Shown piece by piece: positions 9,245-62,366 of a stretch of 64,000 nucleotides of DNA; the first letter of the stretch is position 1, and the number at the start of each line of letters is the position of its first letter. The stretch is taken from the NCBI GenBank assembly GCA_963556255.1, contig OY744616.1:11293927-11357926 (forward strand). The letters run 5' to 3'. The stretch is from Allolobophora icterica (Eukaryota > Annelida > Clitellata > Crassiclitellata > Lumbricidae). Made by a program: the position numbers and the translations under genes. The notes under the pieces are model-generated. The model saw nothing but the letters and a program-made list of their open reading frames with translations, was not told the origin of the DNA and did no database searches.

Positions 9245-23001
<13,757 letters not shown>

Positions 23002-33700: not shown

Positions 33701-35311
33701 ATTTATAGGCTAGAATGCGTGAATCAAATTACAATATGCCAAAAATAAATATATAATTTCCTATCAGTTCATCCCCCACTGACCCACCCACCACCATCAA
33801 CCCACTCATCCATCTATTCACCCACTCACCCATCCATCTACCCAACTATCCATCCATGCATCCATTTATCCATCCATCCATCCATCCATCCATCCAACCA
33901 CCCAGCCATGGGTTCAAACCAAGACAAAGGGGCAACAGGCTCAGACATTATCCTTCAGGCAGCACTTATAGCAGATGACCTCAAACCCATAGCCAACAAA
34001 AATACAAAGTGAATGCATACACATACAAGTTACAATTCATGCTGTACATGCTGACACAAAAGCAGGAAGCGATTGGTATAGCAAAGGTGAGCAATGATCT
34101 CTACGATGCTAATGTAAACGTAATTAGCAACTTCTATTGTGCCCGCATCTAATGCATAATGTACCAATCGAAGACGCACCAAAACCAAACCGTAATCAGG
34201 TCAATATCCAGAAGATCAGTCTGCAATAAGCATGACTAGGATACTAGGATACATGCATCATGAAACTATCCAAAGGCCTTTCACTCCACTGCATCTACCC
34301 AAAAATCCCATCCTGCCTAAAAGCTGTTACATAAATGTTTGGTTATAATAAGCAAAATGGAAGCCACAACAAAAACGCACCTCCTTGTGAACTCTCCTGG
34401 TTCAGCATAGCGCAGACCAGACATGGAGCCGAGAGCATCTATTACGGCTGATGAAACAGCCAGGCCACCATGGACATGAAGCTCACAACAGTCTTCTCCA
34501 GTAAAACTGTTTGGCCCTGTACACACATTTCATCAACAGAATATAAGAACAGTCCCTTATGCTAGCCCTGAGGCAGCCATGGATATGAAGTGTTAGTGAC
34601 TTCACTTTCTTAGCCTTGGCATGAGGAAGGATGACCAGCTCTCACCGTGCTGTCTAAACTTCCCACAGACAGTGTACGGTCAGTGTACGGCTATACACAT
34701 TATAGCTGAGTTGGCTAGGGGGCGCAAGTGGAGACAAAAATTTCTTACCTTCTTCTATGAATCAATATTTATACAACTAAAAACATGTAAGTATGAAACC
34801 CTGTCTCACTCGACTCATCAACTAGAATTTCCCTACATACGTTACAATTAAAAATAATACAGATCTAGAAACATCATACATGGTTTTTAATTATGTACAC
34901 AGAACTCGCTCTTAAAAGATTTGTTTAAATAAATTCACCTGGAAACCATAGCAACAAGCCACGGTCAATCTGCTCTCCAGTAACTGGGTGATAGAATCGT
35001 CTTAGGTGGGCTTTTCTTGGTTCCAGACTATCTTTGCACTTTGCAATCGTCCTCATGACATCCTTCACTAAAACCCCCGACACGCGAAACACCATAACGC
35101 CACATTTTCCCGCACCGGACGAAAGAGCAAAAATTGTATTACGCGCTTTGGATCTCTCCGAGGCGTAAACTCGGATGCTAGCCTGTCTCAAATCGATTAA
35201 CTTCGAGGTCAGTGTCCTTGGTTTTGCAGTTATAGTATAACTAAATGTGGTCTTTAGAAAGTTTGAAAGACTAATCAGCTGACAGCCATGCGCAAGTGGG
35301 CGATAATACAT
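27771..35311 (-). CDS. GTPBP3: GTPBP3, mitochondrial tRNA-modification GTPase (MnmE family), nine exons
   Basis: GTPBP3 works with MTO1 in mitochondria to make 5-taurinomethyluridine at tRNA position 34. Minus-strand exons are 35311-34939, 34516-34381, 33678-33525, 32898-32826, 32157-32014, 31123-30958, 30317-about 30085, 29240 (or 29246)-29057 and 28002-27771. Phases agree and give about 564 codons. The first exon has a basic, Ser/Thr-rich presequence and then the MnmE N-terminal domain (FRVSG, HPVTGE). Next come [15 protein letters not shown] and [10 protein letters not shown] with [16 protein letters not shown]. The G domain is complete: G1 [10 protein letters not shown]2 AGTTRDV, G3 DTAGLR, G4 NKQD, G5 SCTADDG. 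The C-terminus is FCIGK, whose Cys is the invariant MnmE cysteine. The 3' end of exon seven is uncertain, and the segment encoded there is longer than in the vertebrate protein. Confidence 0.95.
28110..28360 (-). repeat. tRNA-derived SINE, family S1 (young copy, in GTPBP3 intron)
   Basis: On the minus strand it has a tRNA-like head (GGCTCAGTGGTAA, then GGTTCGAATCCCAC), a GGACCTTGGGCAAGTCCTTC block and an AATAAATAAA tail. It is about 95 percent identical by eye to 38281-38512 over 200 bases, implying recent activity. Confidence 0.85.
30640..30800 (+). mobile_element. LINE 3' fragment (in GTPBP3 intron)
   Basis: GGAAGACCTCAACAGATG through GAACCTGCCCAAGGGCAGAG and TTGAAGAAGAAG match the end of the LINE at 38513-38690 in order and spacing. 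Confidence 0.55.
31548..31692. repeat. Tandem repeat, TACCTGTTTCTGTTTC unit
   Basis: Eight to nine imperfect copies of a 17-18 bp unit within a GTPBP3 intron. Confidence 0.85.
32322..32495 (-). repeat. tRNA-derived SINE fragment, family S3
   Basis: A TAATAATAAT tail followed by TTTATTAATTCAAACTGACA and TTTTACAGGAGTCGAATTTA, the complement of the 37360-37460 segment. Confidence 0.65.
33770..33905. repeat. (CATC)n / CCAC-rich repeat
   Basis: CATCCATCCATC and CACCCACTCACC units in a GTPBP3 intron. Confidence 0.88.
34550..34738 (-). repeat. SINE family S4 fragment (in GTPBP3 intron)
   Basis: Complement of the S4 body: GAAGTGTTAGTGACTTCA, TTTCTTAGCCTTGGCATG, then TATAGCTGAGTTGGCTAG. Confidence 0.55.
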
Positions 35312-35639
35312 GTTGCGCCACTTAAATATAAACCTCCCAAACTATATAGAGCACAGAAAGACCATTTGCATGTACCTGCTTACATTAATAATCAATACTT
35401 ATTTATAATTGCTAATACGCTCCTTTTACTCTTAAATTGTGGCTCTTATCGAGTGTTTGAGACCCAAAAATTGTATACATAAACTATAAATAACTTTGAC
35501 GCACCTACACATCTATCTATGATCATAAGTAAGTAAGTAAGTAAGTGTTTTCTTTAGTTAACGCTAGCAAACGCACAACGCCCTCAAGATTGAAAACAGT
35601 TACTAAGCATTATCATCAGTCTGATCACCATTATCATCA

Positions 35640-39032: not shown

Positions 39033-39312
39033 TCTGTGTAGGCTAACGGTCGTCTGTGTAGGCTAACGGTTGTCTGTGTAGGCTAACGGTTGTCTGTGTA
39101 GGCTAACGGTTGTCTGTGTAGGCTAACGGTTGTCTGTGTAGGCTAACCGTTGTCTGTGTAGGCTAACGGTTGTCTGTGTAGGCTAACGGTTGTCTGTGTA
39201 GGCTAACCGTTGTCTGTGTAGGCTAACGGTTGTCTGTGTAGGATAACGGTTGTCTGTGTAGGCTAACCGTTGTCTGTGTAGGCTAACGGTTGTCTGTGTA
39301 GGCTATAGCGGT
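39033..39312. repeat. 20-bp minisatellite with a 3-unit higher-order pattern
   Basis: About 14 copies of GGTTGTCTGTGTAGGCTAAC. A G-to-C variant (AACCGTT) occurs in units 6, 9 and 12, which suggests amplification of a 60-bp trimer. Confidence 0.93.
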
Positions 39313-40844
39313 TGTCTTTGTCCAGAATAACCGGAAAAATTTGACTGCAGTTTATCGTTCGATAAATTTCATAAATTCAACTCGTTAAATTCAGCCGGAT
39401 CCCGCCGGATCTGAGATCCAGTCCCTCTGATTTGAGACCATGCAGTTACCTGGCCTATAGCCTATAATGAGATCCGCCACCTAAAAGAGAAGACCCATCA
39501 CCTAACTGTTTTTGTTTACGTCGACATGTTTCACACATTTTATGTTCGTTTAAACAGCGAATAGTGAATATCAACAATAGATCACGCAGGTTTTAGAACT
39601 GGAGAGCCGCCACCTCTGATGAACAATTAGAGTTCCGTCGAAGGGTTAATTAATTCTTTCTTCCTGCGTATGCGCCCCAACTGATTGTTAAATTTCGAAC
39701 GGTGGCAGTTGTCTTGTTCGTATACAGTCACAAAGTTGATCTTCGTCTTGCGGTCCTCTTTTCTCTAACTTCCAAGTTAATTCCGACATCACTGGCTGAC
39801 TTCGATCATTTGATTCATCGATGGTATCTTGTCTCTTTTCGAAAGTTTCATCTTGAACCAGTTGCACAGGTTGGTCGATGTCATTTGCTTCGTATACCTA
39901 GATAAACATACGTATAAGAAACAGAAGACTTATTCTCACAGATATTTAAACGACACCCAACGTTGCATACTTTATTCCCTGCCAGCATGTTCATTAAAAT
40001 TTGAAGGGATTCGTATAGGTCCTTAATCAGTGTTTAATCTAGTCCCCCTCTTCTGAGGGAGGAAACAAGGTTTGTCGGGGGACCAACAACGGCGACCTTT
40101 TGTGAAATTTCATCTGCACGTGTTTCATCCAACGTCGGTTTTTGGGAATTTCATCTTTAAAAAAGTTTATGACCTTTTTTAGTCATTCATCCCACTTTCT
40201 TCACTTTTAAAACTGTTACGACCTATTTTACTCATTTGCTCGTCTCTGGGGAGCGCAACATGTCTCGATCCTGGGGGGGGGGGAGAATTTCCAAAGGTTT
40301 CTGCATTAGAATATTGCTGGCCTCTGGAAATCCCCCCCCCCCAAAAGGTGTCTAGATTAAACACTGGTCCTTAATGGACCCACATAGAGTGAGCAGGGCT
40401 ATAAACGGCCACCGTCAGATGCCACAATGGCCGTGGCCTGCAAGCGGTATAGGCCTATGCCTTTTGTTTGCAGTGGGCAGGCTTAATTACAACGTAGGCC
40501 CTACAAATCCAACTGGGGCTTTATCCTATACAGCGCCATGGTTAATTGGGTGAATAGATTTAAAACCTAGATTAGAAAAGGTTATAGAGTCCCACTATAA
40601 TCCATCCAATCCTTCGCCTTCCAAGTTACATTTCTCGTCCTCAACGAAACCAGCCTTACGCCACAATATGCTACTATGATTATCAGTTTTTATCACCACA
40701 CATGCTGATTTATGTATATGAGCGTTCTGACTAATTCATTGCTGTCTGCTAGCTGTTTTCATTAAATTCTTCTAAAAATGTAGAAGCGAGCATCTGCAAT
40801 CTGATAAACTCCGATGGATGGTCTCATCTTGACTGTCTAGTATA

Positions 40845-45363: not shown

Positions 45364-47062
45364 ATGGAGCCTATGACGTCATCGATGAAGTTTCGAATCG
45401 CGTTTGCGATCATCGGAATTTTCGTCGGATTGTCGATAGGTGTCTGTTTTGGCTTCGTCTATGGGAACATCGACACAGCTGTTTGGGGACTCATGTCAGG
45501 TGGGCAATCAGTCAATCAATTAATAAATCAATCGATTGATCAGTCGGTGAATCAATCAAGCATCACTGTCAGATCAATTTATCAATTCGAAGCTGTACAA
45601 TTGCCAAACTCCTGTGTTACGCTTCACCTACGAAAGTATATTATATATCTGCGTTTAATACTTATCTGTACTTCTGTAGGCTATCTAACAATCATGTAGG
45701 CCCTAAATGTAAATCTCCGAAATTTCTCAGCGCCACACAAAAGCCACGCAAGGGAGACCAGCTTATACAGCGGCGCTATACCAAATCACGTCCGCAATTA
45801 CAGCCTTGTCCGTTCCTGTGCCAGCTTAGAGTCCTGAGAGATCAAGCCGAGGAAGTCATATGTGACAGTATGATCAGAAGGCGTACAGATCCATCCATCC
45901 ATCCATCCATCCATCCATCCATCCATCCATCCATCCAATCCAAACAACCATCCATCCAATCATCTATTCGTCCATCCATCCAACCATCCATCCATCCCAA
46001 CATCCATCCATCCTACCGACCAGCCATCCAACCATCCATCCAAACAACCATCCATCAATTCATCCAACCATCCATTCATCTGTAGGTCGTAATTAAGTGC
46101 GCATGGCGCCATACAAATGCATGACTAAATTAAACGTGTATTGTTTCGTTGTCGTAGGGTTGTTTGCCGGTGTAACGTTGTTCATGCACATAAAGCAAGC
46201 GAAGGATCAGTGGAACACACAGTCGACCGTCCTTCGATGTCTCATGTACCTCGGATGTCTCGGTCAACTGGCGTCCGTCGTCGCCGCTCTTGTATATCTC
46301 GTCATTGCCATCGTCGAAAAACAGGGTCAGTTCAAACACATGATAGGATATCGTAATCTATTCTACACAGGCTTATACATATCCTATCCAGGTTCCTCCT
46401 CTTCCATATACTTCTCTCGCCGCTTCCACTCTAAACACCATAGCGGTCTGTCTGTCTGCCTTTTAAAATCTTGACCTGGAAACGATTTTGACCCCACCTG
46501 CATTCGTCTATCTCGTTTATGGATGTACAATCCCTGCGCTCGCTTCTGGAATCAACCACTAGGCCTATAAGGCATTTAATTCTTTGTCTAAACTATTTCT
46601 CCGATCAAGTCAACTCTGGTCTCGCAGCACTGCAAGCTGTGGAGATATGCAGATGCCGCGCTAACGCACTTCAACTCAAGCTCATCGTGCCTTCTCGGGT
46701 ATTGGCCAACATTATCAAACTGTCTTAAAACGCATTTGTTTAGATCAGTTAAATAGCCACATGCAGCGCTTTTGTGAGGTAATGAAAAGGCGCTATATTA
46801 AGTACCTTGATACTTACATACAGGCTGATACAGCTGTACATACATTAAAATGACTGCAGTGTCGTCACTCCCTAATAACCGCTTTGTGTGTTGTTTCTGT
46901 TTAGCGCTGACTCCATACGGAAGAGGCTACTACCTGAGCTGTGTCTGGACTCTCATGACCTGGAAATGGGCTTTCATCCTGTTCTACTGCGCACGCAGCT
47001 ATAGACGACTGTACGAAGAACGCCATCGGACAAATCCCGACGTTGGCTACCAGAAGATCTGA
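45364..47062 (+). CDS. SLC48A1: Heme transporter HRG1 / SLC48A1, three exons
   Basis: HRG1 is a small four-helix protein that exports heme from endolysosomes into the cytosol. Exons are 45364-45499, 46158-46325 and 46905-47062 (TGA 47060-47062); all joins are phase 1 with GT/AG sites, giving 153 residues against about 146 in vertebrates. Helix 1 is in [20 protein letters not shown]; helix 2 includes [19 protein letters not shown], whose His matches the heme-ligand His of the family; helix 3 is [17 protein letters not shown]; helix 4 is [20 protein letters not shown], followed by the aromatic/basic ARSYRR tail comparable to the family's C-terminal heme-binding motif. Intron 1 contains a CATC tetranucleotide array. 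Confidence 0.93.
45888..46083. repeat. (CATC)n repeat in SLC48A1 intron 1
   Basis: CATCCATC units with CAACCATCCATCCAAACAAC variants. The Pro/Ser/His/Ile-rich open frame is an artefact. Confidence 0.93.
46390..46840 (+). mobile_element. Degraded LINE 3' region in SLC48A1 intron 2
   Basis: CTTAAAACGCATTTGTTTAG can be read as LKTHLF, the usual last residues of CR1/L2-type ORF2, and is followed by a short 3' UTR with AAAAGGCGCTATATTAAGTA. Frames upstream are broken. It shares blocks with 6740-6930. Confidence 0.5.
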
Positions 47063-51095: not shown

Positions 51096-51593
51096 TTTCT
51101 TCTATAGACTACGCGAAAAGAAAAGTTGCTTTTCAAGGTTAGGACTACAAATCTTCACATCCGAACAACCTTCCCGCAACCAATAGAGCCTTTGGAAGAG
51201 TGCCCTACATACGAACATTCCTATTGGTTTCTATAAATAGAACTTGCTTATAATGTAAATAAGTCAATAAACACAAAACGCACGCTGATTGGTCCAACTG
51301 ACTTCACGTATCGGAAACAACACGTCATAGAGCTTGTTTAATAAAGATGACGTAATTTAACGGGTAACCTGGTCATTCTGATATGTAACGCGTTGTTGTT
51401 TGGTATAGAATGTAACTGGAAGTGGAAAGGAGTGGCGCAAGAGGACGGGAAGCTGGATCTTTGAAAGGTGTTGGTCGCTAGGGTTACGTAATATATTCAG
51501 GTTTTGTGTGGTGCTGAGAAATTTCAGAATTTACATTTACAGTTGCACTCTAGTGTGTTTAATTGTTTCCTTGCAATAAAAATGATCCACTTC

Positions 51594-51602
51594 TATGTTA
51601 AG
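51594..51602. repeat. Left 9-bp target-site duplication
   Basis: TATGTTAAG directly abuts the left end of the palindromic element. The identical 9 bases are at 62129-62137. Confidence 0.9.
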
Positions 51603-51817
51603 ACCTCCGTCAAGTTGGTTTGATATTCACATTCGGATATTGGATATTCGGTATGGAAAGCCGCAGGTCAAATACAAGTTTAAACATCTTCAAAAAATTC
51701 GCATTTCTACATAAAATGTTATATCAAACCCACCACCAATCAACAGTTATCCACTGTAGGCAATCAGAAATAATCGCAAACTGATTACTGCATGTGTGAA
51801 AGTGGGTCAAATTTAGG
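51603..51817 (+). repeat. Left terminal inverted repeat of the palindromic element
   Basis: The outer about 125 bases (ACCTCCGTCAAGTTGG ... ATATCAAACCC) are unique to the ends. The inner part (AACAGTTATCCACTGTAGGC ... TAGGCCTAAACACGGGG) is a diverged satellite monomer, suggesting the arrays grew from the terminal repeat. Confidence 0.9.
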
Positions 51818-54530
51818 CCTAAACACGGGGAAAAGCCATTTTCACACATTTTCTCACTGTAAGTGTCTCATGACATGTGCTTCTATGACTTTCACTATTC
51901 CTATCATGAGTTATCCACCTAGGAAACCAGAAAATAATTTCAAACTGATTTTGCCATGTGCGTAAGTTAGGCCTAAACACGGGGAAAAGCCATTTTCACA
52001 CATTTTCTCACTATAAGTGTCTCATAGCATGTTGGACTTAGAACTTTTCTCTTCCTATCATGAGTTATCCACCTAGGGAACCAGAAAATAATTTCAAACT
52101 GATTTTACCATGTGGGTAAGTGGGTCAGATTTAGCCCTAAACACGGGTAAAACCATTTTCACACACTTTCTCACTATAATTGTCTCATAGCATGTTCGAC
52201 TTAGAACTTTTCTCTTCCTATCATGAGTTATGGGTAAGTGGGTCAGATTTAGCCCTAAACACAGGGAAAGCCATTTTCACACACTTTCTCGCTATAATTG
52301 TCTCATAGCATGTTCGACTTAGAACTTTTCTCTTCCTATCATGAGTTATCCACCTAGGGAACCAGAAAATAATTTCAAACTGATTTTACCATGTGGGTAA
52401 GTGGGTCAGATTTAGCCCTAAACACGGGGAAAGCCATTTTCACACACTTTCTCACTATAATTGTCTCATAGCATGTTCGACTTAGAACTTTTCTCTTCCT
52501 ATCATGAGTTATCCACCTAGGAACCAGAAAATAATTTCAAACTGATTTTACCATGTGGGTAAGTTGGTCAGATTTAGCCCTAAACACGGGGAAAGCCATT
52601 TTCACACACTTTCTCGCTATAATTGTCTCATAGCATGTTCGACTTAGAACTTTTCTCTTCCTATCATGAGTTATCCACCTAGGGAACCAGAAAATAATCT
52701 CAAACTGATTTCATTATGTGGGTAAGTGGGTCAGATTTAGCCATAAACACGGGGAAAAGTCATTTTCACATTTTCTCACTATAATTGTCTCATAGCATGT
52801 TCGACTTAGAACTTTTCTCTTCCTATCATGAGTTATCCACCTAGGGAACCAGAAAATAATTTCAAACTGATTTTACCATGTGGGTAAGTGGGTCAGATTT
52901 AGCCCTAAACACGGGGAAAGCCATTTTCACACACTTTCTCGCTATAATTGTCTCATAGCATGTTCGACTTAGAACTTTTCTCTTCCTATCATGAGTTATC
53001 CACGTAGGGAACCAGAGAATAATTTCAAACTGATTTTACCATGTGGGTAAGTGGGTCAGATTTAGCCCTAAACACGGGGAAAGCCATTTTCACACACTTT
53101 CTTGCTATAATTGTCTCATAGCATGTTCGACTTAGAACTTTTCTCTTCCTATCATGAGTTATCCACGTAGGGAACCAGAAAATAATTTCAAACTGATTTT
53201 ACCATGTGGGTAAGTGGGTCAGATTTAGGCCTAAACACGGGAAAAGCCATTTTCACACATTTTCTCACTGTAAGTGTCTCATGACATGTGCTTCTATGAC
53301 TTTCACTATTCCTATCATGAGTTATCCACCTAGGGAACCAGAAAGTAATCTCAAACTGATTTCATTATGTGGGTAAGTGGGTCAAATTTAGGCCTAAACA
53401 TGGGGAAAAGCCATTTTCACACATTTTCTCACTATAATTGTCTCATAGCATGTTCGACTTAGAACTTTTCTCTTCCTATCATGAGTTATCCACCTAGGGA
53501 ACCAGAAAATAATTTCAAACTGATTTTACCATGTGGGTAAATGGGTCAGATTTAGCCCTAAACACGGGGAAAGCCATTTTCACACACTTTCTTGCTATAA
53601 TTGTCTCATAGCATGTTCGACTTAGAACTTTTCTCTTCCTATCATGAGTTATCCACGTAGGGAACCAGAAAATAATTTCAAACTGATTTTACCATGTGGG
53701 TAAGTGGGTCAGATTTAGGCCTAAACACGGGGAAAAGCCATTTTCACACATTTTCTCACTGTAAGTGTCTCATGACATGTGCTTCTATGACTTTCACTAT
53801 TCCTATCATGAGTTATCCACCTAGGAAACCAGAAAATAATTTCAAACTGATTTTGCCATGTGGGTAAGTGGGTCAGATTTAGGCCTAAACACGGGGAAAA
53901 GCCATTTTCACACATTTTCTCACTATAAGTGTCTCATAGCATGTTCGACTTACAACTTTTCTCTTCCTATCACGAGTTATCCACCTAGGGAACCAGAAAA
54001 TAATTTCAAACTGATTTTACCATGTGGGTAAGTGGGTCAGATTTAGCCCTAAACACGGGAAAAGCCATTTTCACACACTTTCTTGCTATAATTGTCTCAT
54101 AGCATGTTCGACTTAGAACTTTTCTCTTCCTATCATGAGTTATCCACCTAGGAACCAGAAAATAATTTCAAACTGATTTTACCATGTGGGTAAGTTGGTC
54201 AGATTTAGCCATAAACACGGGGAAAAGCCATTTTCACATATTTTCTCACTGTAAGTGTCTCATGACATGTGCTTCTATGACTTTCACTATTCCTATCATG
54301 AGTTATCCACCTAGGGAACCAGAAAGTAATCTCAAACTGATTTCATTATGTGGGTAAGTGGTTCAGATTTAGCCCTAAACACGGGGAAAGCCATTTTCAC
54401 ACACTTTCTCGCTATAATTGTCTCATAGCATGTTCGACTTAGAACTTTTCTCTTCCTATCACGAGTTATCCACCTAGGGAACCAGAAAATAAACTGAAAC
54501 TGATTTCATTATGTGGGTAAGTGGGTCGTA
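51780..54530 (+). repeat. Left satellite array, ~163-bp monomer, about 17 copies
   Basis: The monomer contains AGTGGGTCAGATTTAG, AAACACGGGGAAA, GCCATTTTCACACA, CCTATCATGAGTTATCCACC and GGAACCAGAAAATAATTTC. Spacing between equivalent points (for example 52381, 52543, 52706) is 162-163 bases. Two subtypes alternate irregularly: type A with CATAGCATGTTCGACTTAGA and type B with CATGACATGTGCTTCTATGA. Open frames of 60-65 codons across monomers repeat only because the sequence repeats. Confidence 0.95.
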
Positions 54531-55214
54531 TAAGGGCCCAAATATGAGGAATTTGTTTTTGCATCAGTGAAGCTATAAGTTACATTTTGAATATTTGCAT
54601 TAATTTCCTTTGGGATTTATTTTATGGTTATATGCATTTAGAATCACTTTTGTCTATGCATTTCTGTTTTTGTATTTATGCATGTGTGAATGTATGAATT
54701 CATGGACGAATAGAGGGGTTCTCAACAATGGTAGCGATTTTCCTGATGGATATATGCATACATACTTACATATACGCACATAGATACAGACAGTCAAAGA
54801 TCGCTGTGACAGAGGGACAGACAGAGTCTTTGCTTTATTTATATAGATAACTATGAAATCAGTAAAGTACAGTAGTTGTCATATAATTCATTAATATTTT
54901 ATTTTGCTAGATTTTGAAGTCAGTTCAATGTGCATTTTGCAATATAACCATACTCAAAATCAATTCAATTTAGAAGTGTTTTTAAAATGTTATTGTTTAT
55001 AGACCTAAGCATATCCTTCCCAAAGTATATTTTCACACGAGACTTTAAATTCTTTATAGTATACATGCATAGCATGCACAGTTAACCGCAAACATAGGCA
55101 TTAAGTAATTAATTGTTTTCACTGTCCATCTTTGGTAATTGTTATGCATAACTGGGATATGTAATTGACCAATCTCAGTAGTCTCCATATTCTGGTTGAA
55201 AGTGATTTTCTCCA

Positions 55215-55321
55215 ATGGCTTCATTGCAAGCAAGAGCCAAAGCAGCTTTTCTACATTACATTCAGCATGGTAATTTGCATCAGCAAATTCAATGCTTGGA
55301 CTCTGGAGGTGGACCACGGGT
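55215..55321 (+). other. Exon-like open segment, left arm copy
   Basis: ATG at 55215 opens MASLQARAKAAFLHYIQHGN, continues for 15 more residues and meets CGG|GTAAGT at about 55320. The right arm has the same segment on the minus strand (57080-56974) starting MASLHARTKAAFLHYIQQGI, again with GTAAGT. Of eight base differences in the segment, seven change the residue, while the 40 bases after the donor are identical. That argues against recent selection for protein. It may be the relic first exon of a lost transposase. Confidence 0.3.
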
Positions 55322-56973
55322 AAGTGTAATTACATATCTGTATGTTAGTTGCATGGCTGAATATTCTCTGAGAAGACTAGCCTCTCCTAAACACAGCATC
55401 TGCATGCTAGTTTTCCAAATGTCCCTTCTCTGAAAATCCTGTTGGTCTAGTAACCTGTTGGTCTAGTCACTCTCCCTTCTTCTTGCCTCTCACTCTCCCT
55501 CTCCTGAATTTTAAAACCCACTGTTGCTCTCCATTAACTACATGTTATGAAAGCAATTGCTACAAATGTTAAAACAATACTGTGAAGACAAGACCCCAGC
55601 CAGATCATGTACATCTAGGTTGTGTTGTAAATTCACAGGTAAAATTTTTGCAGTAAAAGTCCAAATTTTTTACTGGTCGAATATGATACAAACAGTTCTA
55701 GGATTACAGAGCTTGGAGTTTGTGCACCTGAAGCTTTCATGCTACTCTTCAGGTGTCAAAAGGACAAACCTGAAGGGTCTAATGGTTGATTCAGGATTGT
55801 CCATTCCATTTCCTGTTGATTATGTTACAGGTGGCTTGCTTTCAAACTTTACAGCTTAAAGTTTGTTTGTTACTTAACTAAGCTGCAACACAAATGTAAA
55901 TAAAATCATTGCACTCTATGATAAAAGTTACAACACAGTCTTTTCAATCAGTAGTTATACTAATTAAAGAACTAACCTTTACATTAAATCATAAATTGAC
56001 TTACAGATGGTACATTCCTCAGAAAAGCTTCACAATAGTGCAAGCTGTGGCAGTTCAATAATTTTGCAAAGATCCTTTGTCAATTTCTTTTTATAATAAC
56101 CAAATAATAACTAGGCCAATTTCATATTTGAGAACTTGTTAGACATTATGCCAAAAAGACTTATATGTAGTGATGTGAAGTGATTTTTCACCAGTAAAAC
56201 CCTGAATCAAGCATTAGACCCTTCAGGTTTGTCCTTTTCACAAGAGTAGCATGTAAGCTTCAGGGGTACAAATTCCAATCTCCGTAATCCTCTTTTTGGT
56301 GATTCAATAAACGAGTCAATCACTCATTTGCCAGATAGCATCAAAGTCGACCAAATAAATGTACAAAATATTTGACCATTTCCATCACTTAAATCATGCT
56401 TTACCATTTCTTTAATGGCTAAACACACCTTTCGAAACATAACCAAGACACTACACTGACAATTCATTTGTACCATTTCCCCCCATATTTTACCTTTTAG
56501 ACTGGTAAACAACCTGGAACTTGGCTAAACACACCTTTTGGCAACATGAGCAACCAAGATATTCCATGATTTAAATCACGTTTTACCACATGTGTTTTTA
56601 CCATATTTTACCATTCCAACTGGTAAAAAATCCGGATTTTTACTGCAAAAACATTTTACCCATAAATTTACAACACTACTTAGATGTCCATGATCTGACT
56701 GGAGTCTTGTCTGGACAATATTGTGTTGACATTTGAAGCAATTGCTTTCATAACATGTAGCTAATGGAGAGCAACAGAGGGTTTTAAAATTCAGGAGAGG
56801 GAGAGTGAGAGGCAAGAGGAAGGGAGAGTGACTAGACCAACAGGTTACTAGACCAACAGGATTTTCAGAGAAGGGACATTTGGAAAACTAGCATGCAGAT
56901 GCTGTGTTTAGGAGAGGTTAGTCTTAGATAAAATTCAGCCATGCAACTAACATACAGATATGTAATTACACTT

Positions 56974-57080
56974 ACCCGTGGTCCACCTCCATAGTCTAAG
57001 CATTGAATTTGCTGCTGCACAATACCCTGCTGAATGTAATGTAGAAAAGCTGCTTTGGTTCTTGCGTGCAATGAAGCCAT
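56974..57080 (-). other. Exon-like open segment, right arm copy
   Basis: Inverted counterpart of 55215-55321 with the same start codon context and GTAAGT donor. No downstream exon could be joined to it. Confidence 0.3.
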
Positions 57081-57664
57081 TGGAGAAAATCACTTTCAAC
57101 AAGAATATGAAGACTAGCCAGATCGGTCAATTACATAATATATCCCAGTTATGCAAAACAAAATTACCAAAGATGCACAGTGAAAATAATTAATAATGCC
57201 TATGTTTGCAGTAAAATCATCATATTCGTTTTTATTATTGATCATAATTATACTGGTTGACACACCGCAACCGTGTACGATAGAAGAGGTTGAACACTAG
57301 CCTGGAGAAAAGAATAATAAAAATGTAAGAAAAAGCCTATAAAATGTGCATGCTATGCATACTGTAAAGAATTTAAATTCTCGTGTGAAAATATACTGTG
57401 GGAAGGATATGCTTAGGTCTATAAACTATACAACATTAAAAACACTTCTAAATTGAATCGATTTTGAGTGTGTTATGTTGCAAAAGGCACATTTAACTCA
57501 CCTAAAAATCTAGCAAAATACAATATTAATAAAATATATGACAACTACTGTACCATACTGATTTTTTAGTTAATTTCTTTAATCTTGTGCAAAATTTGTA
57601 ATGCATAAAATGAATAAAAGAAGTAAAGCTTACCAAATATGATAGCTTCACTGATGCAAAAAAT

Positions 57665-60600
57665 TCCTCATATTTTGGCCCTTATATGACCCACTTACCC
57701 ACATAATAAAATCAGCTAGAGATTTTTCTGTTTCCCTAAGCGGATGAATCACCATAGGAATAGTAAAACTCACAGAAACATATGTTATGAGACACTTATA
57801 GTGAGAAAATATGTGAAAATGGCTTTTCCCCGTGTTTATGGCTACCACATAATGAAATCAGTTTGAGATTATTTTCTGGTTCCCTAGGTGGATAACTCAT
57901 GATAGGAAGAGAAAAGTTCTAAGTCGAACATGCTATGAGACAATTATAGCGAGAAAGTGTGTGAAAATGGCTTCCCCCTGTTTAGGGCTAAATCTGACCC
58001 ACTTACCCACATGGTAAAATCAGTTTGAAATTATTTTCTGGTTCCCTAGGTGGATAACTCATGATAGGAAGAGAAAAGTTCTAAGTCGAACATGCTATGA
58101 GACAAATATAGTGAGAAAGTGTGTGAAAATGGCTTTCCCCGTGTTTAGGCCTAAATCTGACCCACTTACCCACATGGTAAAATCAGTTTGAGATTATTTT
58201 CTGGTTCCCTAGGTGGATAACTCATGATAGGAAGAGAAAAGTTCTAAGTCGAACATGCTATGAGACAAATATAGTGAGAAAGTGTGTGAAAATGGCTTTC
58301 CCCGTGTTTAGGCCTAAATCTGACCCACTTACCCACATGGTAAAATCAGTTTGAAATTATTTTCTGGTTCCCTAGGTGGATAACTCATGATAGGAAGAGA
58401 AAAGTTCTAAGTCGAACATGCTATGAGACAATTATAGCGAGAAAGTGTGTGAAAATGGCTTCCCCCGTGTTTAGGGCTAAATCTGACCCACTTACCCACA
58501 TGGTAGAATCAGTTTGAAATTATTTTCTGGTTCCCTATGTGGATAACTCATGAAAGGAATAGTGAAAGTCATAGAAGCACATGCTATGCCACACTTATAG
58601 TGAGAAAATGTGTGAAAATGGCTTTTCCCCGTGTTTAGGCCTAAATCTGACCCACTTACCCACATGGTAAAATCAGTTTGAAATTATTTTCTGGTTCCCT
58701 AGGTGGATAACTCATGATAGGAAGAGAAAAACTCTTAAGTTGAACATGCAATGAGACTATTATAGTGAGAAAATGTGTAAAAATGGCTTTTCCCCGTATT
58801 TAGGCCTAAATTTGACCCACTTACCCACATAATGAAATCAGTTTGAGATTGCTTTCTGGTTCCCTAGGTGGATAACTCATGATAGGAATAGTGAAAGTCA
58901 TAGAAGCACATGTCATGAGACACTTACAGTGAGAAAATATGTGAAAATGGCTTTCCCCGTGTTTAGGCCTAAATCTGACCCACTTACCCACATGGTAAAA
59001 TCAGTTTGAAATTATTTTCTGGTTTCCTATGTGGATAACTCATGATAGGAATAGTGAAAGTCATAGAAGCACATGTTATGCCACACTTACAGTGAGAAAA
59101 TGTGTGAAAATGGCTTTTCCCCGTGTTTAGGCCTAAATTTGACCCACTTACCCACATAATGAAATCAGTTTGAGATTACTTTCTGGTTCCCTAGGTGGAT
59201 AACTCATGATAGGAATAGTGAAAGTCATAGAAGCACATGTCATGAGACACTTACAGTGAGAAAATGTGTGAAAATGGCTTTTCCCGTGTTTAGGCCTAAA
59301 TCTGACCCACTTACCCACATGGTAAAATCAGTTTGAAATTATTCTCTGGTTCCCTAGGTGGATAACTCATGATAGGAAGAGAAAAGTTCTAAGTCGAACA
59401 TGCTATGAGACAATTATAGCAAGAAAGTGTGTGAAAATGGCTTTCCCCGTGCTTAGGGCTAAATCTGACCCACTTACCCACATGGTAAAATCAGTTTGAA
59501 ATTATTCTCTGGTTCCCTAGGTGGATAACTCATGATAGGAAGAGAAAAACTCTTAAGTTGAACATGCAATGAGACAATTATAGTGAGAAAATGTGTGAAA
59601 ATGGCTTTTCCCCGTGTTTAGGGCTAAATCTGACCCACTTACCCACATGGTAAAATCAGTTTGAAATTATTTTCTCGTTCCCTAGGTGGATAACTCATGA
59701 TAGGAATAGTGAAAGTCAAAGAAGCACATGTTATGAGACACTTATAGTGAGAAAATGTGTGAAAATGGCTTTTCCCCGTGTTTAGGCCTAAATTTGACCC
59801 ACTTACCCACATGGCAAAATCAGTTTGAAATTATTTTCTGGTTCCCTAGGTGGATAACTCATGATAGGAATAGTGAAAGTCATAGAAGCACATGTTATGA
59901 GACACTTATAGTGAGAAAATGTGTGAAAATGGCTTTTCCCCGTGTTTAGGCCTAAATCTGACCCACTTACCCACATGGTAAAATCAGTTTTAAATTATTT
60001 TCTGGTTCCCTAGGTGGATAACTCATGATAGGAAGAGAAAAGTTCTACGTCGAACATGCTATGAGACAATTATAGCAAGAAAGTGTGTGAAAATGGCTTC
60101 CCCCGTGTTTAGGGCTAAATCTGACCCACTTACCCACATGGTAAAATCAGTTTGAAATTATTTTCTGGTTCCCTAGGTGGATAACTCATGATAGGAAGAG
60201 AAAAGTTCTAAGTCGAACATGCTATGAGACAAAGATAGTGAGGAAGTGTGTGAAAATGGCTTTCCCCGTGTTTAGGCCTAAATCTGACCCACTTACCCAC
60301 ATGGTAAAATCAGTTTGAAATTATTTTCTGGTTCCCTATGTGGATAACTCATGATAGGAAGAGAAAAGTTGTAAGTCGAACATGCTATGAGACAATTATA
60401 GCGAGAAAGTGTGTGAAAATGGCTTCCCCGTGTTTAGGGCTAAATCTGACCCAGTTACCCACATGGTAAAATCAGTTTGAAATTATTTTCTGGTTCCCTA
60501 TGTGGATAACTCATGAAAGGAATAGTGAAAGTCATAGAAGCACATGCTATGCCACACTTATAGTGAGAAAATGTGTGAAAATGGCTTTTCCCCGTGTTTA

Positions 60601-61960
60601 GGCCTAAATCTGACCCACTTACCCACATGGTAAAATCAGTTTGAAATTATATTCTGGTTCCCTAGGTGGATAACTCATGATAGGAAGAGAAAAACTCTTA
60701 AGTTGAACATGCAATGAGACTATTATAGTGAGAAAATGTGTGAAAATTGCTTTTCCCCGTATTTAGGCCTAAATTTGACCCACTTACCCACATAATGAAA
60801 TCAGTTTGAGATTGCTTTCTGGTTCCCTAGGTGGATAACTCATGATAGGAATAGTGAAAGTCATAGAAGCACATGTCATGAGACACTTACAGTGAGAAAA
60901 TATGTGAAAATGGCTTTCCCCGTGTTTAGGCCTAAATCTGACCCACTTACCCACATGGTAAAATCAGTTTGAAATTATTTTCTGGTTTCCTATGTGGATA
61001 ACTCATGATAGGAATAGTGAAAGTCATAGAAGCACATGTTATGCCACACTTACAGTGAGAAAATGTGTGAAAATGGCTTTTCCCCGTGTTTAGGCCTAAA
61101 TTTGACCCACTTACCCACATAATAAAATCAGTTTGAGATTACTTTCTGGTTCCCTAGGTGGATAACTCATGATAGGAATAGTGAAAGTCATAGAAGCACA
61201 TGTCATGAGACACTTACAGTGAGAAAATGTGTGAAAATGGCTTTTCCCCGTGTTTAGGCCTAAATCTGACCCACTTACCCACATGGTAAAATCAGTTTGA
61301 AATTATTCTCTGGTTCCCTAGGTGGATAACTCATGATAGGAAGAGAAAAGTTCTAAGTCGAACATGCTATGAGACAATTATAGCAAGAAAGTGTGTGAAA
61401 ATGGCTTTCCCCGTGTTTAGGGCTAAATCTGACCCACTTACCCACATGGTAAAATCAGTTTGAAATTATTCTCTGGTTCCCTAGGTGGATAACTCATGAT
61501 AGGAAGAGAAAAACTCTTAAGTTGAACATGCAATGAGACAATTATAGTGAGAAAATGTGTCGAAATGGCTTTCCCCGTGTTTAGGGCTAAATCTGACCCA
61601 CTTACCCACATGGTAAAATCAGTTTGAAATTATTTTCTGGTTCCCTAGGTGGATAACTCATGATAGGAATAGTGAAAGTCAAAGAAGCACATGTTATGAG
61701 ACACTTATAGTGAGAAAATGTGTGAAAATGGCTTTTCCCCGTGTTTAGGCCTAAATTTGACCCACTTACCCACATGGCAAAATCAGTTTGAAATTATTTT
61801 CTGGTTTCCTAGGTGGATAACTCATGATAGGAATAGTGAAAGTCATAGAAGCACATGTCATGAGACACTTACAGTGAGATAATGTATGAAAATGGCTTTT
61901 CCCCGTGTTTAGGCCTAAATTTGACCCACTTTCCCACATGCAGTAATCAGTTTGCGATTA
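57665..61960 (-). repeat. Right satellite array, ~163-bp monomer, about 26 copies
   Basis: Same monomer as the left array in opposite orientation (TGGATAACTCATGATAGGA, CCGTGTTTAGG, GACCCACTTACCCACATG). A long block is duplicated: TATGTGGATAACTCATGAAA at about 58537 recurs at about 60500, an offset of 1,963 bases or 12 monomers, and the order of subtypes that follows is the same for over 1 kb. Confidence 0.95.
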
Positions 61961-62128
61961 TTTCTGATTGCCTACAGTGGATAACTGTTGATTGGTGGTG
62001 GGTTTGATATAACATTTTATGTAGAAATGCGAATTTTTTGAAGATGTTTAAACTTGTATTTGACCTGCGGCTTTCCATACCGAATATCCAATATCCGAAT
62101 GTGAATATCAAACCAACTTGACGGAGGT
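61914..62128 (-). repeat. Right terminal inverted repeat of the palindromic element
   Basis: Exact complement of 51603-51817 except one base seen (CCCACATGCAG here against CACACATGCAG expected). It ends CTTGACGGAGGT next to the duplication. Confidence 0.9.
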
Positions 62129-62137
62129 TATGTTAAG
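62129..62137. repeat. Right 9-bp target-site duplication
   Basis: TATGTTAAG, identical to 51594-51602. Confidence 0.9.
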
Positions 62138-62366
62138 GCTGTTACAACTTAACGAATCTGGTTCACGGTTTCGAGTACTAGTCCGCTGTGGAAAATACGT
62201 GCGCTATAAAAAATGTCTTCGCTGAAATAGGTCTAATGCATGCGTTAATAATTTGATAGGCAGCATTACAGTCTATGTTTTATTTAGAAGTTTCTGAAGA
62301 GGTATGTAAACAAGCGAGTTACCATTGAAGTAGGCCTAGAGTACAATGCGGCAATTATAGTGCGCC

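What the first reader, a model, noticed from the sequence alone, without database searches (positions are those of the whole stretch)
51594..62137. 10.5-kb palindromic transposon built from inverted satellite arrays
The interval is one foldback structure: a 9-bp duplication (TATGTTAAG), near-identical 215-bp ends, two ~163-bp-monomer satellite arrays in opposite orientation, and an inverted core around a small loop. Few transposons carry whole satellite arrays inside their terminal repeats. Drosophila FB elements and sea-urchin TU elements share the design, but the monomer here is much longer. I do not recognise this family.
Basis: partly seen in the sequence, partly recalled or inferred. Interest (0 to 1): 0.88.

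Follow-up and report, generated by a model that had tools for sequence, protein, structure and literature searches.

The report
Jumping palindrome carrying satellite-like arrays
This is a recently mobile foldback transposon of an unnamed animal genome whose two ends each hold a long array of a 163-base repeat; the design was already known from one fruit-fly element, but here long arrays evidently travel with the element and appear to change quickly.

Summary
The element is 51603-62128, flanked by an exact 9-bp duplication. Inverted 131-bp tips are followed by opposed arrays of a ~163-bp monomer (17 and 27 units), then core arms (86-90% identical) around a ~390-bp loop. The unnamed 1.118-Gb genome holds many copies: 98 tip matches against 0 for the reversed control, 25 loci with the core. 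All 16 copies examined at both ends have an exact 8-10-bp duplication, all different. An empty paralogue of this site lies about 109 kb beyond the element. No copy read encodes a transposase; a Mutator-like (MULE) enzyme is the likeliest mover, but no MULE with matching tips was found. Closest known is Tetris of Drosophila virilis (same design, ~220-bp repeats). Two features stand out. Three sister copies whose cores differ by 2-5 substitutions show 11-12 gap runs of whole monomers between their arrays (assembly error not excluded). Two of them share 23 and 25 collinear monomers per arm, so long arrays travel. Of 998 monomer sites genome-wide, the 581 located all lie in or beside this family. 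New variant of a known kind.

The parts
51594..51602 (.). left target-site duplication TATGTTAAG
   Evidence: single copy TATGTTGAG in the empty paralogue
51603..51733 (+). left 131-bp tip (ACCTCCGTCAAGTTGG...); its outer part, up to ~72-90 bp, is shared with many other elements of the genome
51736..54551 (+). left array: 17 anchored units of a ~163-bp monomer; the first is diverged, the third holds an extra partial copy, the last is truncated
54536..55800 (+). left core arm (arm A)
55215..55319 (+). 35-aa mini-ORF followed by GTAAGT in arm A; shows no coding constraint
55801..56190 (.). loop, ~390 bp, 100% identical in sister copies C8a and C1
56198..57679 (-). right core arm (arm B), 86-90% identical to arm A over the aligned segments; 56291-56623 is a B-side stretch found in all 11 copies read
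56976..57080 (-). second copy of the mini-ORF in arm B
57664..61995 (-). right array: 27 anchored units (the innermost truncated), with a block of 6 monomers (4-9 from the tip) repeated 12 monomers further in (16-21)
61998..62128 (-). right 131-bp tip, identical to the left tip
62129..62137 (.). right target-site duplication TATGTTAAG

Best explanation
A young, non-autonomous foldback DNA transposon family, most likely of the Mutator (MULE) superfamily, cut and pasted in trans by a transposase that recognises the short tip. SHOWN: precise insertion with an 8-10-bp duplication, an empty site, many copies, no transposase-like frame in the copies scanned, and a constant core with variable arrays. 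SHOWN BY COMPARISON OF COPIES, if the assembly is right: the arrays differ by whole monomers and by blocks of several monomers. Two sister copies share 23 and 25 collinear monomers per arm, so an ancestor with long arrays has moved. INFERRED: the monomer arose as a unit just inside the tip and was amplified by unequal exchange or repair-linked slippage; the two opposed arms exchange some sequence with each other; the arrays may act as extra transposase-binding sites, as was shown for Galileo repeats. The MULE assignment rests on duplication length and on MULEs of the same genome that have internally repeated ends; the actual partner was not found.
For: Duplications: 16 of 16 copies seen at both ends (11 read in full, 5 only at their ends) have an exact 8-10-bp duplication (14 x 9, 1 x 8, 1 x 10), all different; 420 mismatched flank pairs give at most 5 bp. 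Empty site: the paralogue at G000:C19:11464683-11465078 matches bases 1-395 of the 400 joined flank bases at 95% and has one target copy. Copy number: 98 tips vs 0 control; 46 of 46 mini-ORF candidates scored, in 25 loci, 43 inside convergent tip pairs and 3 within 4.1 kb of an unpaired tip. Recent activity: core identity 99.84-99.94% within one subfamily of 3 and 99.2-99.8% within another of 4. Array behaviour. No transposase-like frame: window; six cores and two inserts; the cores of the other four copies read are at least 99.2% identical to a scanned one; five shorter relatives and three enlarged loops. MULE context: 150 of 402 MULE candidates scored, most without stops; MULE locus L100 has a 9-bp duplication and ends built of a 15-bp tandem unit, and MULE locus L099 has three 206-bp copies in one end.
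Against: No transposase gene with these tips was found: none of the 150 scored MULE hits lies within 70 kb of any of the 98 tips (252 candidates were not scored), and six MULE loci sampled have at best 12-13 of 20 tip bases, though in three of them no long inverted ends were seen in the 6 kb read. So the superfamily is inferred. Transposase binding to the monomer is untested, and the 131-bp tip shows no similarity to the monomer above shuffles (score 31, shuffle maximum 45). Inter-arm exchange is only partly supported: a tree of a ~590-bp arm segment still separates A arms from B arms (support 71/83), and in 6 of 11 copies the two arms share no block longer than 2 monomers. Part of the array differences could be assembly error, and one of the compared arrays (C1) is interrupted by a nested element.
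Confidence: 0.88

Rival explanations
1. A foldback transposon moved by a transposase of another superfamily (P-like as Galileo, Merlin, Rehavkus or an undescribed one), not a MULE.
For: No MULE with these tips found; foldback design arises in several superfamilies (Tm1 discussion; Galileo). Rehavkus also makes 9-bp duplications (passage in PMC6446971).
Against: 8-10-bp duplications with 9 as the mode fit MULEs; a MULE with repeated ends and a 9-bp duplication lives in the same genome (L100); Galileo's 7-bp duplication (recalled) does not fit.
Confidence: 0.22
2. The transposon is real, but the large differences in array length between sister copies are mostly errors of assembling tandem repeats.
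For: No reads are available here; tandem arrays are error-prone; 11-12 gap runs against 2-5 core substitutions is a high ratio.
Against: The gained or lost units carry diagnostic variants and the rest stays collinear; arrays of 2-11 kb are within reach of long reads (recalled); old copies and minis also vary in monomer number; copies outside the two sister groups share almost no blocks (mean longest shared block 0.5 monomers), which assembly error would not produce.
Confidence: 0.12
3. Gene capture: the core arms carry an exon taken from a host gene (ATG ... GTAAGT), as in Pack-MULEs.
For: A 35-aa open frame followed by a splice-donor-like GTAAGT sits in both arms of the window copy and, with some indels and base changes, in the other copies read.
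Against: All 46 hits genome-wide at E up to 10 lie in or beside elements of the family, no parent gene; 14 nonsynonymous to 1 synonymous distinct changes, against 22% synonymous expected; no Pfam or PDB match.
Confidence: 0.05
4. Not a transposon: a host palindrome or an assembly inversion.
For: None beyond the inverted structure itself.
Against: 25 core loci, different duplications, empty site, arms ~10% diverged.
Confidence: 0.01

Closest known systems
Tetris / DAIBAM, Drosophila virilis group (PMC4079207; abstract, section 10 and part 1 of section 16 read)
   Same: Modular inverted ends: outer flanking domain, internal tandem repeats of ~220 bp, inner domain, then a middle without conserved open frames; non-autonomous; 8-10-bp duplications; shares its outer ends with the MITE-like DAIBAM; repeat number differs between allelic copies; larger arrays (up to 66 repeats) are reported to have grown inside Tetris.
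   Different: Monomer 163 bp; sequences could not be compared. Intact copies here, with duplications, carry 10-66 monomers per arm, against 3 and 4 in the left end of the allelic Tetris copies described. The Tetris authors describe long satellite-like arrays and suggest that larger arrays may have disrupted transposition; here no free array was located (581 of 998 sites placed) and long arrays have evidently travelled.
Galileo, P superfamily, Drosophila (PMC3573991: abstract, section 7 and part 1 of section 10 read; PMC3688188: abstract read)
   Same: Long ends; subfamily F has two or three copies of a ~210-bp tandem repeat; copies exchange sequence; longest ends are on non-autonomous copies; repeats hold extra transposase-binding sites.
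   Different: Encodes a P-type transposase; 7-bp duplication (recalled); at most three repeats in the text read.
Tm1 Mutator/Foldback family, root-knot nematodes (PMC3169594; abstract, section 9, part 1 of section 11 read)
   Same: Composite ends with variable numbers of tandem units, 9-bp duplications, MITE-like and transposase-bearing members; MULE (Phantom) transposase.
   Different: Unit most often 14 bp, 1-9 copies; a transposase-bearing member is known.
FB of D. melanogaster and TU of sea urchin (recalled; only mentioned in papers read)
   Same: Foldback design with internally repeated ends.
   Different: Short repeat units (recalled).
Crassostrea gigas Helentrons carrying satellite-like arrays (PMC7492417; title and start of abstract in a search listing only)
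   Same: Mobile element that carries tandem repeats.
   Different: Helentrons have no long inverted ends and make no target duplication (recalled).

Membership tests
Foldback transposons (structural class) | Long inverted ends containing tandem repeats, around a middle | tested here: met
   11 of 11 fully read copies
Foldback transposons (structural class) | Mobile, with target duplication | tested here: met
Mutator (MULE) superfamily | 8-11-bp, usually 9-bp, target duplication | tested here: met
   14 of 16 copies 9 bp, one 8, one 10
Mutator (MULE) superfamily | Encodes, or shares tips with an element that encodes, a MULE transposase | tested here: inconclusive
   No transposase-like frame in the copies scanned; no tip within 70 kb of 150 scored MULE hits, 252 candidates unscored; six MULE loci show no such tip
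Tetris | Module order tip - tandem repeats of ~200 bp - inner domain - middle | tested here: met
   against text
Tetris | Sequence homology of tip or repeat | not tested
   no Tetris sequence or repeat library was on hand
Galileo / P superfamily | 7-bp duplication (recalled) | tested here: not met
   duplications 8-10 bp
Galileo / P superfamily | P-type THAP transposase | not tested
   no transposase in the copies; the genome was not searched for P-type transposases
Helentron/Helitron | No target duplication, no inverted ends (recalled) | tested here: not met
Free satellite DNA | Monomer forms long arrays outside the element | tested here: inconclusive
   998 monomer sites genome-wide: 508 in the 11 read copies and all 100 listed places (73 of them outside those 11) in or beside elements; 417 were not placed, and unassembled DNA cannot be judged

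The most novel reading that the evidence does not exclude
Moving drives the satellite. The opposed arrays are working parts of the transposon (multiple transposase-binding sites), and each excision, repair or insertion cycle rewrites them through pairing of the two arms. The family would then be a mobile generator of new array haplotypes that keeps kilobase arrays alive in dispersed places and seldom or never releases them as free satellite DNA.
Probability: 0.25. Interest if true: 0.75.

Novelty: new variant of a known kind. Interest (0 to 1): 0.5.

Why it matters
How satellite arrays start, grow and are kept homogeneous is an old question, usually studied in centromeres where the copies are hard to date. 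Here each array sits in a transposon with a core that acts as a clock: sister insertions with cores 99.8-99.9% identical can be compared monomer by monomer. The family also bears on a published suggestion, made for Tetris, that large internal arrays may stop transposition: here an ancestor with more than 20 monomers per arm has evidently moved.

Tried and rejected
Gene capture in the core was considered and dropped. A search for the autonomous partner failed: open frames were listed for the window element, for the cores of six copies and two inserts (the longest ten per stretch), for five shorter relatives, for three elements that share only the tip, read on one side, and for the extra stretches of three enlarged loops; six MULE loci were checked for the tip. 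The long frames found belong to nested retroelements or unrelated DNA. Pfam found nothing in four frames of L040 and L041. The tip does not contain the monomer. The viral-contig scan for the tip found nothing. Rfam and tRNA scans of the window found nothing. The tree of arm segments did not give clear support for wholesale conversion between arms. A test whether monomers of the two arms of the window copy differ as groups was weak (124 of 2000 permutations as extreme). L046-L052 did not reach the ends of that MULE family.

Literature searches whose listings showed no report of this family: (open-licence PubMed Central only). No repeat library was available, so absence from Repbase or Dfam is not claimed.
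Full report
Observation. The element runs from 51603 to 62128. TATGTTAAG flanks it at 51594-51602 and 62129-62137. The first 194 bp of the two ends are identical, and ~99% identity reaches about 360 bp. Inside a 131-bp tip begins an array of a ~163-bp monomer: 17 anchored units on the left, 27 on the right, in opposite orientation. Then follow inverted core arms, 86-90% identical over 936 aligned bases, and a ~390-bp loop. The arms differ in substitutions, indels and array length, so an assembly inversion of one molecule is excluded.

It is a family. In the genome that holds the window (1.118 Gb in 328 contigs, unnamed), a search with the left end returned 40 scored matches of 148 candidates, all at least 97% identical. 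The 22-base tip with up to 2 mismatches occurs 98 times and its reversed control 0 times; a 20-base pattern with up to 3 mismatches gives 224 against 45. The 98 tips form 27 convergent pairs of 337 bp to 33 kb, with 44 tips left unpaired. A 35-aa mini-ORF of the core gave 46 hits, all candidates scored, in 25 loci. In 21 loci there are two inverted copies, in 18 of these 1.76-1.90 kb apart. Of the 46 hits, 43 lie inside convergent tip pairs and 3 within 4.1 kb of an unpaired tip. The core is thus fairly stable while total length varies.

It has moved. I read 11 copies in full (window copy included) and the two ends of 5 more. All 16 have an exact target duplication: 14 of 9 bp, one of 8, one of 10, no two alike. 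Of five further, older or smaller relatives, four have an exact 9-bp duplication (two of these are the same insertion in duplicated DNA) and one has 8 of 9 matching. Flanks paired wrongly on purpose (420 pairs) never exceed 5 bp. The joined flanks of the window copy match bases 1-395 of 400 at 95% at G000:C19:11464683-11465078, on the same contig about 109 kb beyond the right end of the element. The alignment (93% over 533 columns with longer flanks) runs through the junction with a single target copy (TATGTTGAG) and no element.

Anatomy across copies. All 11 copies have tip, array, core arm, loop, core arm, array, tip. Anchored monomer units per arm range from 10 to 66; the arm with 66 (C174) includes two 88-bp pieces. 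C1 carries a 6-kb LTR retrotransposon inside one array and C14 a 3.3-kb LINE. I listed open frames for the window, for six cores and the two inserts, for five shorter relatives, for three elements sharing only the tip and for the extra stretches of three enlarged loops, and saw none resembling a transposase of a cut-and-paste element. The cores of the other four read copies (C12a, C5a, C174, C1) are at least 99.2% identical to a scanned one. The mini-ORF shows 14 nonsynonymous and 1 synonymous distinct changes among the 10 of 22 arm copies without indels, with 22% synonymous expected, so it is not kept as a protein.

Ages and array turnover. Cores of C19w (window), C8a and C1 are 99.84-99.94% identical; those of C4a, C12a, C5a and C174 are 99.2-99.8%. 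In substitutions: 2-5 in the first group over 3.1 kb, and 9-13 among C4a, C12a and C5a over 4.6 kb (33 between C4a and C174). At monomer level the arrays of sister copies are partly collinear, with runs gained or lost. Between C8a and C1, 23 monomers of arm A and 25 of arm B pair up with 0-4 differences each; C19w pairs fewer. Each of the three pairs among C19w, C8a and C1 shows 11-12 gap runs over the two arms, against 2-5 substitutions and 1-3 small indels in the core (the run counts are my reading of the printed alignments, adjacent opposite gaps counted apart, and the C1 array is interrupted by a nested element). Since 23-25 monomers per arm are shared by descent in C8a and C1, their ancestor, which moved, already carried long arrays. 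Within arms, blocks are duplicated at various lags, for example 15 monomers at lag 16 in C174, 12 at lag 9 in C1, 13 at lag 8 in C13 and 6 at lag 12 in the window copy; some arms show no long block. Between copies outside the two sister groups the longest shared block averages 0.5 monomers (184 arm pairs), although their cores are still 92-98% identical. Between sisters it averages 3.8, and between the two arms of one element 3.2, though 6 of 11 copies have no block over 2 there. So arrays are replaced lineage by lineage, and in some copies the two arms share blocks.

Exchange between arms. Core arms are 97-98% identical in C4a, C12a, C5a, C174 and C5b (C5b: 100% over 667 bp) but 84-89% in the other six copies. 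Tips differ by 0-4 of 131 bases between the two ends of a copy in all 11. This fits occasional conversion between arms. Against it, a tree of a ~590-bp arm segment keeps A and B arms apart (support 71/83), so conversion is partial at best.

Origin of the array. Of the 44 unpaired tips, 41 were read in 40 stretches; 3 were not fetched. Seven of the 40 carry family monomers after the tip (one of them only half a monomer). By my reading, a further 11 carry one diverged monomer-like unit scoring above the best of 60 shuffles, some only marginally; about one such case is expected by chance. The remaining 22 share only the outer tip, over 22-90 bp. An older 5-kb copy (tips 86% and 92%) has about 6 monomers on one side and 5 on the other. 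This fits a single unit just inside the tip that was amplified later, but array loss in old copies cannot be excluded. The tip itself shows no similarity to the monomer. A 34-base monomer pattern (up to 3 mismatches) occurs 998 times, control 0. Of these, 508 lie in the 11 copies read; of the 100 places listed, 96 lie inside tip pairs and 4 within 5.2 kb of an unpaired tip, 73 of the 100 being outside those 11 copies. Thus 581 of 998 are placed, all in or beside the family; 417 were not placed. I saw no free array, but cannot exclude one.

Which enzyme. Duplications of 8-10 bp, mostly 9, point to Mutator-like transposases. The genome is rich in them: 150 scored of 402 candidates, many with long intact frames in near-identical copies. 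Two MULE loci show the same tendency: L100 has a 9-bp duplication and ends made of ~11.6 copies of a 15-bp unit; L099 has three 206-bp copies, 99% alike, at one end, but no duplication was found for it. No scored MULE lies within 70 kb of a tip, and in six sampled MULE loci the best tip match is 12-13 of 20; three of the six showed no long inverted ends in the 6 kb read. The partner is unknown and the superfamily is an inference.

Comparison. Tetris (PMC4079207; abstract, section 10 and part 1 of section 16 read) has the same order of modules, ~220-bp repeats, 8-10-bp duplications and no transposase. Its authors proposed the Mutator superfamily, reported arrays of up to 66 repeats that grew inside Tetris, and suggested that larger arrays may have disrupted transposition. 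Galileo F has two or three ~210-bp repeats (section 7 of PMC3573991), and Galileo repeats bind the transposase (abstract of PMC3688188). Tm1 joins foldback ends of ~14-bp units with a Phantom MULE transposase (PMC3169594). The present family works like these. Whether it is related by sequence to any of them could not be tested. What is new is the size of the arrays in intact copies that bear exact duplications, the evidence that long arrays travel, and a set of dated sister arrays that suggests how fast they change.

Limits. No reads, no species name, no repeat library, and one genome only. Array differences rest on the assembly.

Noticed in passing
L100 (G000:C9:37974700-37980700): A 484-aa MULE family member with a 9-bp duplication (GTTAAGAAG) and ends built of ~11.6 copies of a 15-bp unit, a foldback-like end on a MULE with an open transposase frame.
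   Followed up: partly
L099 (G000:C2:2597400-2603400): A 388-aa MULE family member with a 206-bp unit in three 99%-identical tandem copies in one end and one copy in the other; no duplication found.
   Followed up: partly
L053-L092: 22 of 40 unpaired ends share only the outer tip (22-90 bp) with this family and then diverge.
   Followed up: partly
L042, L043, and G000:C3:85053740-85054270: A 526-bp derivative with one full 131-bp tip and only 19 bp of the other, flanked by 9-bp duplications; L042 and L043 have the same flanks, so they are one insertion in duplicated DNA, and the C3 copy has the same 12 bases on one flank.
   Followed up: partly
L044 (G000:C1:35305372-35305908): A 337-bp element with the same outer tip, an unrelated interior and a 9-bp duplication.
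   Followed up: partly
L041 (G000:C9:782037-786532): A 4.3-kb relative with the tips and some monomers but a different core.
   Followed up: partly
17741-18595: Open frame of 285 aa resembling Tc5/pogo-type transposases, all matches below Pfam cut-offs.
   Followed up: no
34928-35341 and 46097-46471: Exon-like frames matching the TrmE N-terminus and the HRG haem-transporter family, both above Pfam cut-offs.
   Followed up: no
39033-39321: Homogeneous minisatellite, 14.4 copies of a 20-bp unit, 95% matches.
   Followed up: no
window 51403-62337 and G000:C19:11464683-11465078: The insertion site lies in DNA that is duplicated (93-95% identical) about 109 kb beyond the element on the same contig.
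   Followed up: partly
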